From contig NZ_CABDWS010000005.1 of NCBI RefSeq assembly GCF_901447495.1, forward strand, positions 1 through 64,000: a stretch of 64,000 bases of DNA. The letters run 5' to 3'. Shown one piece after another: positions 1-55,796 of the stretch (within the stretch, counting starts at the first letter, position 1; every line of letters starts with the position of its first letter). The position numbers were made by a program, and so were the translations under genes. A model generated the notes under the pieces. It searched no databases, was not told where the DNA came from, and was given only the letters and a program-made list of their open reading frames with translations. This DNA is from Haloimpatiens lingqiaonensis. Its GTDB lineage: Bacteria > Bacillota > Clostridia > Clostridiales > Clostridiaceae.

Positions 1-1
1 T

Positions 2-70
2 AAATGTGGACTGAAAATAGACAGAGATAAAAACGCTTCAATTAATCTTGGTAACTATAAATTAGCATAA
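2..70 (+). pseudogene. C-terminal end of TnpB-like (OrfB) nuclease, cut by window start
   Basis: The open frame from base 2 reads KCGLKIDRDKNASINLG and six more residues to TAA. A Cys-Gly followed by DRDxNAxxN is the zinc-ribbon exit and RuvC-III motif that closes IS605 TnpB proteins, RNA-guided nucleases related to Cas12. Only 22 residues lie in the window, so whether the full protein is intact cannot be judged. It is listed here as a fragment. Confidence 0.7.
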
Positions 71-261
71 TATCACCTAAAAGATAATGCTAATATGTAC
101 CCTGCGTTGTGGGGGAATTCAAGTCCTTGGAGAGTTACACAAACTAGAGTAGAATAATTAATTATTCAAAATAGAACTCTATGAATAGGAAATGTTATTT
201 GGTAACGAATAACACAAGTAAAATTTATATATTTATAACTTTTTATAAGTTTTATACAACG
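71..261 (+). ncRNA. Candidate omega (right-end) RNA scaffold of the TnpB element
   Basis: TnpB proteins use a guide RNA transcribed across the 3' end of their own gene and the right end of the element. Here the tnpB stop is followed by a GC-richer block at 98-137, including CCCTGCGTTGTGGGGG, which can fold as a short hairpin. Then comes GGAATTCAAG, which resembles right-end segments of clostridial IS605 elements as I remember them. If the element ends near 261, the guide would be read from the activator gene starting at about 262. No transcript is shown; this is inference from position and family. Confidence 0.35.
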
Positions 262-1092
262 GTCTTTGCTCAAAGTATACATTATAACGGTATAAGAAGT
301 AACCAGCCCTTTATACCCATAAATTGTGCAGCAATTCCCAGTACTCTTTTGGAAGGAATGCTTTTTGGTACCACTAAGGGAAGTTTTACAGGAGCAGAAA
401 ATAAGAAAGGATTATTTCAATTAGCTCATAGAGGCACAATACTTTTAGATGAAGTTAACTCTATGGACACATATCTTCAATCTAAGCTTCTTAGGGTGCT
501 TCAAGATGGATATATAAGACCTATAGGTAGTAGTAAGGTTTTTGAAGTAGATGTTAGAGTAATAGCAACATTAAATAAGGAACCTAAGGAATTGATTAAA
601 CAGGGGAAACTACGAGAAGATTTTTATTATAGATTAAGTGTTATAAGAATAGATATACCTCCTTTAAGAAATAGAAAAGAAGATATAATAATTCTTACAA
701 ATTATTTTGTTCATTATTATAGTAAATTACTAGGAAAAGAGGTTCAAGGTGTAGATGAATTGGTGATGGAAAAATTCATAAATTATAATTGGCCAGGAAA
801 TGTGAGAGAACTAAAAAATATTATAGAATCTGCTATGAATATGAGTGATGAGGAAGAATTGCTTCATAAAGAATTTTTTGAGAATAAAATAATTAAGCAA
901 GAAAAGGACAATATGTTAAGTGCATATAGTAATTCAAATTTAAATTTGAATGATTATATAGAGGAAATTGAAAGAAAAATAATTAAGCAGGAGCTAGAAA
1001 ATCACCAGGGTAATATAACTAAGACTGCAGATAAATTGGGGATTTCTAGGCAGAATCTACAGTATAAAATTAAAAAATACAATATTATATAA
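262..1092 (+). pseudogene. Sigma-54-dependent transcriptional activator, 5'-truncated by IS insertion
   Basis: Homology starts at VFAQSIH, directly after where the Walker A motif (GxTGTGKE) of an enhancer-binding protein should be. Present are GSFTGA (the sigma-54 contact loop), Walker B ILLDEV, the arginine-finger region and a C-terminal Fis-type helix-turn-helix (ITKTADKLGISRQNLQYKI). Missing are the sensory N-terminus and the nucleotide-binding P-loop. The possible ATG at 181 has no ribosome binding site and lies in the IS part, so I do not treat it as a start. A terminator follows. Its place directly upstream of a sigma-54 promoter suggests it was the activator of the ornithine operon. 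The remaining fragment could not hydrolyse ATP. Confidence 0.8.
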
Positions 1093-1283: not shown

Positions 1284-1313
1284 AGCATACTGCAAAATAA
1301 TTTGCAGTATGCT
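1284..1313. promoter_or_regulatory. Perfect inverted repeat, likely upstream activator site
   Basis: AGCATACTGCAAA, spacer ATAA, TTTGCAGTATGCT: perfect 13-bp arms centred about 245 bp upstream of the sigma-54 -12 element. Fis-type helix-turn-helix activators bind such palindromes 80-250 bp upstream of sigma-54 promoters. No T-run follows on either strand, so a terminator is unlikely. It is the only strong palindrome in the 1168-1628 gap. Confidence 0.6.
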
Positions 1314-1541: not shown

Positions 1542-1557
1542 TGGCATGGAATTTGCT
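1542..1557 (+). promoter_or_regulatory. Sigma-54 (-24/-12) promoter of the ornithine operon
   Basis: TGGCATGGAATTTGCT matches the consensus TGGCAC-N5-TTGCW in all but one position, with correct spacing of the GG and GC dinucleotides. It lies 71 bp before the ord start codon. There is no good sigma-A promoter nearby. It makes expression dependent on RpoN and an ATP-hydrolysing activator. Confidence 0.8.
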
Positions 1558-1628: not shown

Positions 1629-2678
1629 ATGAGTAAAGTTAAAGTGATTTCTTGGGGACTTGGAGCTATGGGCAGTGGAATGGCAAAAATGCTTTTAGAA
1701 AAAAAAGATGTGGAAATTGTGGCAGCAGTGGATATGGCGCCATTTAAAATTGGAAGGGATTTAGGAGAAGTTTTGGACATAGGTAAAAAATTAAATGTAA
1801 ATGTAAGTGATGATTTTTCTAAAATAAAACACATTGAGGCGGATGTAGTAATTCTTGCTATAGATTCTTTTGTGAAAAACGTATTTCCTTGCATAAAACA
1901 AATAGTTGAAAGTAAAAAGAATTGTATAACTATTGCGGAAGAAATGGCCTATCCTTATGAAGAGCATAAAGAGCTAGCTGAGGAAATGGATAGATTAGCA
2001 AAAGAAAATGGAGTAACTATACTAGGTACAGGGGTAAATCCTGGTTTTGTACTTGATACTATGATAATTACATTATCTGCAGCTTGTAGAAAAGTACACT
2101 CTATAAGTGCTTCTAGAGTAAATGATTTATCTCCATTTGGACTTACAGTTATGAAAACACAAGGCGTAGGTACTACTCTACAGGAGTTTGAAGAGGGAAT
2201 TAAAAATGGAAGTATAGTTGGACATATAGGATTTAAACAATCTATACCTATGATAGCTAAGGCATTAGGTTTAGAGATAGATGAAATAGTAGAAACTAGA
2301 GAACCTATTATATCTAATACTTATAGGGAAACTCACTGCATAAAAGTAGAGCCAGGAATGGTTGCAGGATGTTGTCATGTTGCTTATGGCAAAAAGAATG
2401 GAAAAACTGTAATAACCCTTGAACATCCACAACAAATAAATCCTCAAAGTGAAGGAGTGGATACAGGTGATTACATTCATATTAAGGGAGATGCAGATTT
2501 AGATCTTTGTATAAAACCAGAAACTCCTGGTGGAATAGGAACTATGGCTATGGCAGTTAATACTATACCATTAGTTATTTCGAGTAAACCAGGTCTTAAG
2601 ACTATGATAGATTTGCCATTACCACATGCTATAGAAAATAGTTTTGTAGAGCAAATAAAATATTATAGAGGTGAATAG
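1629..2678 (+). CDS. ord: 2,4-diaminopentanoate dehydrogenase
   Basis: Oxidises and deaminates (2R,4S)-2,4-diaminopentanoate to 2-amino-4-oxopentanoate with NAD(P)+, the third step of oxidative ornithine fermentation. The 349-residue protein starts with a Rossmann motif (GLGAMGSGMAK, residues 10-20) and has GTGVNPGFVLDTM near residue 135, typical of this dihydrodipicolinate reductase-like family. The start is set by the AGGGGGAG site just before ATG. It is the first gene of the operon, directly behind the sigma-54 promoter, and ortA follows after 5 bases. The function is supported by the complete pathway downstream. Cytoplasmic, no signal peptide. Confidence 0.93.
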   Translation: MSKVKVISWGLGAMGSGMAKMLLEKKDVEIVAAVDMAPFKIGRDLGEVLDIGKKLNVNVSDDFSKIKHIEADVVILAIDSFVKNVFPCIKQIVESKKNCITIAEEMAYPYEEHKELAEEMDRLAKENGVTILGTGVNPGFVLDTMIITLSAACRKVHSISASRVNDLSPFGLTVMKTQGVGTTLQEFEEGIKNGSIVGHIGFKQSIPMIAKALGLEIDEIVETREPIISNTYRETHCIKVEPGMVAGCCHVAYGKKNGKTVITLEHPQQINPQSEGVDTGDYIHIKGDADLDLCIKPETPGGIGTMAMAVNTIPLVISSKPGLKTMIDLPLPHAIENSFVEQIKYYRGE

Positions 2679-2683
2679 AAACT

Positions 2684-2980
2684 ATGATAGAAAAGGGAAC
2701 TTGGGTAGAAATAACCAGAACAGTTTTAGAACCTAATGAAAGAGCGGATAATATACCGGAGGATACCAAAAACACTCCTTTAAAAATGTGGGTTAAGGGC
2801 TTTTGCAAAAAAGATTGTAATATAGGAGAAGAAGTGGAAATAGAAACACTAACTGGAAGATGCGAAAAAGGAATAGTTACAGAGTGTGAACCAAGATATG
2901 TCCATGATTTTGGTGATTATGTGAAAGAAGTTTCTCACATAGGAATTCAAGCAAAAAAAATACTAAATAGTTTAGAGTAA
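2684..2980 (+). CDS. ortA: 2-amino-4-oxopentanoate thiolase, alpha subunit
   Basis: Small 98-residue subunit of the thiolase that cleaves 2-amino-4-oxopentanoate with CoA into acetyl-CoA and alanine. It has a compact beta-rich sequence with a GTWVEI start and Cys residues in FCKKDCNIGEE. OrtA and OrtB occur only together in ornithine fermenters. It is five bases from ord and 12 from ortB, so translation is probably coupled. Identification rests on its size and on the pathway order ord-ortA-ortB. Confidence 0.9.
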   Translation: MIEKGTWVEITRTVLEPNERADNIPEDTKNTPLKMWVKGFCKKDCNIGEEVEIETLTGRCEKGIVTECEPRYVHDFGDYVKEVSHIGIQAKKILNSLE

Positions 2981-2992
2981 GAAGGTGAAATT

Positions 2993-4396
2993 TTGAGTAA
3001 ATATCATGAGCTTATGGAAAGAAAAAATGAAATAATGCTTAAATCTGTGAAAATAAATTATTCTAAATATGAAAAATCAAATATTGCATTTGATTATGAA
3101 GATATGATGAAGGATACAGGATATGAACTTCAGGATGTAATAAGAATACAGAAGGAGACAGGAGTAGGGAATACACCTCTATTAGAGTTAAGAAATTTAA
3201 CGGCTTTAGCAAGAAAAGTATCTAAAACTGGTGAGGCTGCTAGAATATTTTTAAAAGATGAAAGTGCTAATCCTTCTGGAAGTTTTAAAGATAGAAGAGC
3301 TGCTTTATCTGTATATGATGCAAAACGAAAAGGTTATAAGGGAGTGGTTTCTGCAACATCAGGAAATTATGGTGCTGCAGTGGCTTCTCAGGCAGCTATG
3401 AGAGGATTGAAATGCATAATTGTTCAGGAATGTTATGATTCTAAAAAAATAGGACAACCAGAGATTATTGAAAAGGGTAGAAAATGTGAATGTCTTGGGG
3501 CAGAGGTAATTCAATTAACAGTAGGACCAGAACTTTTTTATACATTTTTAAAGGTTTTGGAGAGCACTGGATATTATAATGCTTCATTGTATTCACCTAG
3601 TGGTATAGCAGGGGTTGAAAGTCTTGGATATGAAATATATAACCAGTGTATGGAGAGGTTTGGAAAAGAACCAGAAGGAGTAGTTGTAACACATGCTGGA
3701 GGAGGAAATTTAACTGGTACTGCAAGGGGACTTAAAAAAGCAGGTGCTATAAATACAAAGGTAATAGGAGCTTCTGTAGATTTAACAGGTCTTCACATGG
3801 CATCAGATAAAGATTTTAACAGAAAATCCTTCACCACTGGACACACTGGTTTTGGTATTCCTTTTATGACTTGGCCTGATAGATCAGATGTGCCAAGAAG
3901 TGCTGCAAGGCCACTAAGATATATGGATAGATATGTAACGGTAAATCAAGGACAGGTATTTTATATGACGGAACTACTTTCTCAAATAGAGGGTATTGAG
4001 AGAGGGCCTGCAGGCAACACATCTTTAGCAGCAGCTTTTGTTATAGCTCAAGAGATGAGAAATGATGAAATTTTGATTGTACAAGAAACCGAATACACAG
4101 GGGCAGGAAAACATATATTACCTCAGCTTACTTTTGCAAAGAAAAATGGAGTAGAAGTAAAATTAGGTGATCCACGAGAAGAGGTGCTTGGAAAAAATAT
4201 TATAATACCAGATCATCCATCAAAAATATTTATAAAGGAAAAACAATTAAATGATTATAAAAAATCTTTAATTAGAAACAATTTGAAAAGTTCTAAAGCG
4301 ACTGTTTTAAATGAAGAGGATATAGAGTTTTTATGTGAAGAAACAAAGCTTAATAAAAGAGAGGTTTTGGACATAATACAAAGTTTAGATAAATAA
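2993..4396 (+). CDS. ortB: 2-amino-4-oxopentanoate thiolase, beta subunit (PLP enzyme)
   Basis: Catalytic PLP subunit of the OrtAB thiolase, 467 residues, of the threonine synthase/tryptophan synthase beta fold. The PLP lysine is probably Lys99 in SGSFKDRR. SGNYGAAV (about 122) and HAGGGNLTG (about 235) are phosphate- and ring-binding loops. The start is TTG, placed by the GAAGGTG site in front. The product, acetyl-CoA plus alanine, feeds energy metabolism. It is followed by oraS after 27 bases. Confidence 0.92.
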   Translation: MSKYHELMERKNEIMLKSVKINYSKYEKSNIAFDYEDMMKDTGYELQDVIRIQKETGVGNTPLLELRNLTALARKVSKTGEAARIFLKDESANPSGSFKDRRAALSVYDAKRKGYKGVVSATSGNYGAAVASQAAMRGLKCIIVQECYDSKKIGQPEIIEKGRKCECLGAEVIQLTVGPELFYTFLKVLESTGYYNASLYSPSGIAGVESLGYEIYNQCMERFGKEPEGVVVTHAGGGNLTGTARGLKKAGAINTKVIGASVDLTGLHMASDKDFNRKSFTTGHTGFGIPFMTWPDRSDVPRSAARPLRYMDRYVTVNQGQVFYMTELLSQIEGIERGPAGNTSLAAAFVIAQEMRNDEILIVQETEYTGAGKHILPQLTFAKKNGVEVKLGDPREEVLGKNIIIPDHPSKIFIKEKQLNDYKKSLIRNNLKSSKATVLNEEDIEFLCEETKLNKREVLDIIQSLDK

Positions 4397-4423
4397 TCTA
4401 ACAAACTACAAGGGGGGCTATTT

Positions 4424-4792
4424 GTGAAAAGAGAAGATGATTTTGAAAAGAGAAGAGAGCATATTAAAGATTTAACCAATGAGGAACTTTACAATAGATT
4501 TTGGAGTTTAACAGAAGAAATAGTAAAACCTATGGTGGATTTGGCATATAATCATACATCTCCATCTATAGAGCGTTCAGTACTTTTAAGAATGGGGTTT
4601 ACGAGTATTGAAGCTTCTGAAATAGTTAAACAGGGAAGTAAATGGAAACTTTTAGGTAAAGGTATGGGGCACGTAGTTTTAAAATATGCAGATATAAAGA
4701 ATATAAATTATATGGAAGCAGGAAGAGAGCTGGCAGAAGGTAAAGGATGGGATAAAGTAAGTGCTTTGATAGGTGGTGCATTAAATGAGTAA
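4424..4792 (+). CDS. oraS: D-ornithine 4,5-aminomutase, small (S) subunit
   Basis: The 122-residue partner subunit of the adenosylcobalamin- and PLP-dependent aminomutase that moves the terminal amino group of D-ornithine to C4. Helical, charged N-terminus; no cofactor motif, as expected because both cofactors bind OraE. GTG start behind an AAGGGGGGC site. The 3' end overlaps oraE by 8 bases, a sign of coupled translation and fixed stoichiometry. Confidence 0.92.
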   Translation: MKREDDFEKRREHIKDLTNEELYNRFWSLTEEIVKPMVDLAYNHTSPSIERSVLLRMGFTSIEASEIVKQGSKWKLLGKGMGHVVLKYADIKNINYMEAGRELAEGKGWDKVSALIGGALNE

Positions 4793-55581: not shown

Positions 55582-55614
55582 ATTAAGATCTCCTTTCCTT
55601 AATTTTTATAAACA

Positions 55615-55742
55615 GATCTCTAACCTTCAGATGGAGTTTTTACTCCAACTGAAGGTTAGAGATCGTTATCCAGGGACGTAGCTGCCGTTATCTTCCACTT
55701 TGTTAGAAGTGGGAGTGTTACGGCAGGTAGTCATCGGATAAA
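55615..55742. repeat. Strongly folded repeat element or structured RNA
   Basis: Hairpin 1 (55615-55664): 16-bp perfect outer stem GATCTCTAACCTTCAG / CTGAAGGTTAGAGATC, small internal loop, GGAGT TTTT ACTCC. Fold 2 (55665-55742): TTATCC/GGATAA closes CTGCCGT/ACGGCAG, which encloses TCCACTT TGTTAG AAGTGGGA. It is much more GC-rich and structured than the surroundings. No coding capacity; stands between two minus-strand genes. Either a dispersed REP/IS605-derived element or an untranslated RNA structure. Confidence 0.6.
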
Positions 55743-55796
55743 ATAAGGAGAGAAAGGTTTCCTCAATACTATTCTATTGTAAATATAACTATTTTG

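What the first reader, a model, noticed from the sequence alone, without database searches (positions are those of the whole stretch)
1..1092. An IS200/IS605-type element has split the likely activator of the ornithine operon
Bases 2-70 encode a TnpB C-terminus. From about 262 an activator frame begins abruptly at VFAQSIH, exactly after where Walker A should be, while the rest of the AAA+ and Fis domains is intact. The promoter this protein should serve, directly downstream, is well preserved. The operon would then be silent, driven by another activator, or the split is recent or reversible by excision.
Basis: partly seen in the sequence, partly recalled or inferred. Interest (0 to 1): 0.7.

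Follow-up and report, generated by a model that had tools for sequence, protein, structure and literature searches.

The report
Self-splicing transposon interrupts ornithine regulator gene
The regulator gene for ornithine breakdown is interrupted in the DNA by a mobile element that also carries a self-splicing RNA intron, so the cell very probably still makes the intact regulator by cutting the element out of the messenger RNA.

Summary
Window bases 1-262 are the right end of a mobile element, and base 263 re-enters a sigma-54 activator just after its Walker A motif. The window begins at a contig end. The missing first half, with Walker A intact, lies at the end of contig C50 of the same draft genome. 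Joining the two flanks gives a complete 455-aa activator, OrdR. Uninterrupted orthologues sit in front of ord in related species.

The interpretation needs correcting. The element is not a plain IS200/IS605 insertion. It is an IS607-type (group B) IStron: a group I intron at the left end, a TnpB gene, and a RAGATH-18 TnpB guide RNA at the right end. It is inserted after GAGG and ends in CGG. Related copies sit inside cooS, dapB and a dppB-type permease gene here, and in many genes of other clostridia, with splice-exact junctions. OrdR is therefore probably made by RNA splicing, and the ord operon is probably not silent. Splicing itself was not tested.

This copy also carries a 137-bp repeat in the P1 loop of its intron; predicted folding keeps the P1 helix. 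It is a new member of a known kind, of moderate interest.

The parts
1..262 (+). Right end of the IStron, cut at its left by the contig end; ends ...CAACGG (base 262)
   Evidence: Two other copies in the genome match to 262 and diverge after it; four copies in G001 end at the same base
2..70 (+). C-terminus and stop of TnpB
   Evidence: 100% identical to residues 355-376 of the G001 TnpB, which matches Cas12f1-like_TNB and OrfB_IS605
124..192 (+). RAGATH-18 RNA (RF03064), core of the guide RNA of IS607-type TnpBs
   Evidence: 65.9 bits against a gathering score of 44.9; role from PMC11061315
263..1092 (+). Second exon of ordR: rest of AAA+ domain, lid and Fis-type HTH. First exon is on contig C50 (L030 1063 down to 526, minus strand)
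   Evidence: Joined flanks give a 455-aa protein; Pfam domains; orthologues and synteny
1284..1313 (.). Palindrome AGCATACTGCAAA-N4-TTTGCAGTATGCT, probable OrdR binding site (UAS)
   Evidence: 13-bp arms, 100% complementary; similar TGCAAA...TTTGCA palindromes before ord in relatives
1542..1556 (+). Sigma-54 (-24/-12) promoter of ord, TGGCATGGAATTTGC
   Evidence: Pattern match; same pattern before ord in relatives
1629..2678 (+). ord, 2,4-diaminopentanoate dehydrogenase, first gene of the operon served by OrdR
   Evidence: DAP_DH_C, 339 bits
2684..9416 (+). Rest of the ornithine operon as the ORFs read: ortA, ortB, then probable oraS, oraE, a MutL-like ORF and the probable ornithine racemase
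   Evidence: ORFs; OrtA and PALP domains; later gene names by operon order known from PMC6615313, not tested individually

Best explanation
A group B (IS607-type) IStron sits in ordR just after the Walker A GKE codons (site GTAAAGAGG^TCTTTG). Shown by sequence: the two halves of ordR on C50 and C5, the element's ends, the group I intron core at the left end, the TnpB C-terminus and guide-RNA motif at the right end, and the in-frame rejoining. Inferred: in the transcript the intron pairs its internal guide (GCCUCC) with the end of exon 1 (GAGG plus the element's first U), cuts there and after the terminal CGG, and joins the exons, giving a normal 455-aa PAS-AAA+-Fis OrdR. OrdR then binds the TGCAAA palindrome and activates the sigma-54 promoter of ord. 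TnpB with its guide RNA (RAGATH-18 scaffold, guide read from the right flank) presumably cuts empty sites and so helps keep the element.
For: Left half of ordR ends at a group I intron; joined flanks give a complete 455-aa activator. Uninterrupted orthologues with the same neighbours, flank alignments abutting within a few bases. GAGG target, CGG end and first U as in group B IStrons. RAGATH-18 at the right end. A short related copy matches the whole group I model at 92 bits. P1 pairing kept in all seven copies folded, this one included. In nine complete copies elsewhere the joined site restores a long frame in six and a ribosome-binding site plus start codon in two. A permease gene in this genome also rejoins exactly. 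Conserved UAS and promoter before ord.
Against: No RNA data. The interior of this copy is not assembled, so a lesion there cannot be excluded, and the C50-C5 link rests on frame and synteny, not on a read. This copy carries a 137-bp repeat in the P1 loop. Exon 1 here ends AGAGG, one pair shorter than GGAGG, though AGAGG is the second commonest flank in the family (7 of 28).
Confidence: 0.87

Rival explanations
1. The element is an IStron, but this copy no longer splices (repeat in P1, or a lesion in the unassembled interior), so OrdR is lost and ord is silent or weakly expressed.
For: The 137-bp repeat lies inside the intron's P1 domain in this copy and not in the six others aligned. The interior is not seen.
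Against: The repeat is self-folding, sits in the apical loop and leaves P1 and its extension paired; the rest of the left-end core is nearly identical to the other copies. Both gene halves stay open and equally conserved.
Confidence: 0.1
2. Plain IS200/IS605-type disruption of the activator, with the operon silent or reversible only by DNA excision.
For: TnpB is shared by IS200/IS605 and IS607 elements, and the gene is interrupted at the DNA level.
Against: Group I intron at the left end, GAGG target and CGG end instead of a T-rich pentanucleotide target, RAGATH-18 RNA, and systematic splice-exact placement in genes.
Confidence: 0.02
3. The frame from ATG 181 is translated as a 303-aa truncated activator starting inside the element.
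For: The frame is open from ATG 181 through the boundary; the same element frame is also in phase with dapB on C4.
Against: It lacks Walker A, which sigma-54 activators need for ATP hydrolysis (established knowledge). At the permease site the same frame meets a stop just after the boundary, so it is not a general feature.
Confidence: 0.01

Closest known systems
Group B IStrons (BcISt1, CbISt1-4, CsISt1; Tourasse 2014, PMC4227781)
   Different: A separate element: the nearest full-length match found in the plasmid collection is 70.9% identical, and no phage record covers 80% of it. No tnpA in any full-length copy seen. The ordR copy carries an extra repeat in P1.
CdISt1 (group A IStron of Clostridioides difficile)
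   Same: Group I intron joined to a TnpB-bearing element that splices from mRNA.
   Different: CdISt1 targets TTGAT-like sites, ends in TCAG and is IS200/IS605-based (PMC4227781).
IS607-type TnpB with RAGATH-18 guide RNA (PMC11061315)
   Same: TnpB gene followed by a RAGATH-18 RNA; AG/GG-rich sequence next to the left end (TAM AGGAG or GAGGG there; GGAGG or AGAGG here).
   Different: About 70 nt lie between RAGATH-18 and the element end here, against about 29 nt of joint region there. Cleavage not tested here.
OrdR, predicted sigma-54 activator of ord-ort-ora-orr (Nie 2019, PMC6615313)
   Same: Position directly before ord, sigma-54 promoter, palindromic UAS, activator domain layout.
   Different: The gene is interrupted by an intron-bearing element in this genome.

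Membership tests
Group B IStron | Group I intron at the 5' part of the element | tested here: met
   RF00028: 53 bits in this copy, cut by the contig end; 92 bits over the whole model in a related copy
Group B IStron | Insertion after a GG-ending site, CGG at the 3' end, first U part of the element | tested here: met
   GAGG|TAACTAAC left, CAACGG|TCTTTG right; only this division keeps the ordR frame
Group B IStron | P1 pairing of guide with exon, internal loop directly after the U-G pair | tested here: met
   Predicted in all seven copies folded; guide GCCTCC kept in 26 of 28 loci
Group B IStron | IS607-type serine recombinase ORF A | tested here: not met
   No ORF over 150 aa besides TnpB in the complete copies of relatives; published group B members also lack it, so it is not required. 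Interior of this copy not assembled.
Group B IStron | Intron class IA2 (P7.1, P7.2, P9.0-P9.2) | not tested
   The Rfam model shows the core but does not resolve the subclass
Group B IStron | Self-splicing activity | not testable with these tools
   Needs RT-PCR or in vitro transcription
IS200/IS605 element or group A IStron | T-rich pentanucleotide target (TTGAT, ATTAT, TTTAT), 3' end TCAG | tested here: not met
   Target GAGG, end CGG
OrdR | Sigma-54 activator encoded next to ord, with UAS and -24/-12 promoter before ord | tested here: met
   Domains; sites in the window and relatives; name from PMC6615313
OrdR | Activates ord in response to ornithine | not testable with these tools
   Needs expression experiments

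The most novel reading that the evidence does not exclude
Splicing of the IStron in ordR, with its extra repeat in the P1 loop, has become a conditional switch that sets how much OrdR, and so ornithine catabolism, the cell makes.
Probability: 0.05. Interest if true: 0.7.

Novelty: new member of a known kind. Interest (0 to 1): 0.36.

Why it matters
It shows how a gene that looks broken at a contig edge can be an intact gene carrying an intron-bearing transposon. Annotation of ordR and, in the same genome, cooS, dapB and a permease gene would otherwise be wrong. It also gives a compact, many-copy clostridial IStron family whose usual target, GGAGG, is both a Shine-Dalgarno sequence and the exon end that the intron recognises, so whether the host gene tolerates it depends directly on splicing.

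Tried and rejected
Plain IS200/IS605 disruption: rejected because of the group I intron at the left end and the GAGG/CGG boundaries. Splicing after the first U, as in ordinary group I introns: rejected because it would shift the ordR frame by one; this agrees with the published exception for group B. Chimeric assembly: unlikely, because the breaks fall in a repeated element and the two flanks rejoin in frame, at the right length and with conserved neighbours. The element interior, the left half of dapB and the right half of cooS were not found in the assembly. A search of the paper library for work on the relation between intron splicing and TnpB guide RNA found nothing on IStrons after 2014; what I recall of such work is not used as evidence. 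dN/dS of the two halves is only weak support, since much of the divergence may predate the insertion.

Full report
Observation. The window is bases 1-64000 of contig C5 of a 184-contig draft, so its first base is an assembly break. Bases 2-70 are a TnpB C-terminus. Two further copies of the first 262 bases, one of them partial, lie at contig ends C116 and C4; all agree up to base 262 and diverge after it, so 262 is the element's right end.

The other half. A search of the same genome for group I introns (RF00028) gave five places, three of them at contig ends (C50, C130, C134). Reading outward from these, C50 carries ...SPVLIYGETGCGKE and then the element. Joining C50 up to GAGG with window 263-1092 gives one 455-aa protein with PAS, Sigma54_activat, AAA lid and HTH_8 domains and with Walker A restored. 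In the sister species G001 the orthologue (85% identical) is uninterrupted. The gene upstream (thrE-like) and ord downstream are the same, and the alignments of the two flanks abut within a few bases; G002 agrees. About forty genomes of the family have an uninterrupted close homologue, and in most of the loci examined an ord-like frame follows it. At this site G001 reads GAAG where this genome reads GAGG.

The element. Left end: GAGG|TAACTAACAGTTACAAATAAG. Right end: CAACGG|. These are the marks of group B IStrons as defined by Tourasse et al. [quoted passage not shown] The left end holds the group I intron: 53 bits in this copy, cut off by the contig end, and 92 bits over the complete model in a short related copy. 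The right end holds a RAGATH-18 RNA (65.9 bits), the core of the guide RNA of IS607-type TnpBs (PMC11061315). Full-length relatives in G001 are 2008 and 2026 bp with TnpB as the only long ORF; two others of 897 and 927 bp have no long ORF.

Why splicing is likely. (a) The intron's guide GCCUCC pairs with exon GAGG plus the element's first U, followed by the internal loop described for group B, in all seven copies folded. (b) In 28 loci found by exact pattern (25 from genomes, 3 from viral contigs) the third exon base from the junction is A or G, the bases that can pair with the guide's U, in every case; 26 keep the guide, and in the two where it was not found the flank is atypical. (c) In nine of these loci with both ends, joining the flanks restores a long frame in six (252 to 1443 aa) and in two places GGAGG before a start codon, those of csrA and a ferredoxin; one is unclear. 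(d) In this genome a dppB-type permease gene also rejoins (C134 + C116), and cooS and dapB carry the element too. (e) Both halves of ordR are equally conserved against G001 (dN 0.079 and 0.076, dS 1.19 and 1.13). This last point is weak, since much of that divergence may predate the insertion.

A complication. The ordR copy has a 137-bp two-hairpin repeat, present in about 40 other places in the genome, inserted in the apical loop of P1. The predicted fold keeps P1 and its extension. I judge that splicing survives, but this is the main reason to test this very copy.

The regulatory context. The protein fits the OrdR of Nie et al. (PMC6615313). A TGCAAA...TTTGCA palindrome and a sigma-54 promoter precede ord here and in many relatives; in G001 the palindrome differs from this one at matching positions of both arms. 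This is consistent with a working OrdR.

Limits. There is no RNA evidence and no read across the element, and the interior of this copy is not assembled. Shown: the split, the element ends, the intron core, the in-frame join, the synteny. Inferred: splicing of this copy, OrdR activity, TnpB function.

Noticed in passing
L034 (G000:C1:53500-59500), about 3310-3830, minus strand: A group I intron (RF00028, 82.7 bits) lies directly after a complete flagellin ORF, and beyond the intron the flagellin C-terminal coding end is repeated with changes (QANNQPQGVLQLLR before, QANQQPQGVLQLLR after). Spliced and unspliced messages might both encode full-length flagellin.
   Followed up: partly
L030 340-476; window 55607-55743; L033 2370-2506: A 137-bp two-hairpin repeat occurs about 40 times or more in this genome and some 19 times in G001 but not in G002. 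It forms tandem arrays that share TTTAT and sits inside two different IStron types. No significant Rfam match.
   Followed up: partly
L033 (G000:C8:7500-13500) 1968-4433: A second IStron type, 2466 bp, with a 462-aa TnpB-like ORF, inserted after AG and ending in CAG (like CsISt1), interrupts a dihydropyrimidinase gene; the joined flanks give a 464-aa frame.
   Followed up: partly
L070 about 2626 and L072 about 3474 (G001, Clostridium sp. KNHs214): Copies of the window's IStron sit directly after the Shine-Dalgarno sequence of csrA (after fliW) and of a ferredoxin gene, so splicing would rebuild the ribosome-binding site rather than a reading frame.
   Followed up: partly
G000 C130 (L031) and C4 (L021): cooS (CO dehydrogenase) and dapB also carry the element in this genome; the other half of each was not found in the assembly.
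   Followed up: partly
G000 C23:2-100 and C45:2-100: Two more contigs begin inside a different TnpB C-terminus, suggesting further unassembled TnpB elements.
   Followed up: no
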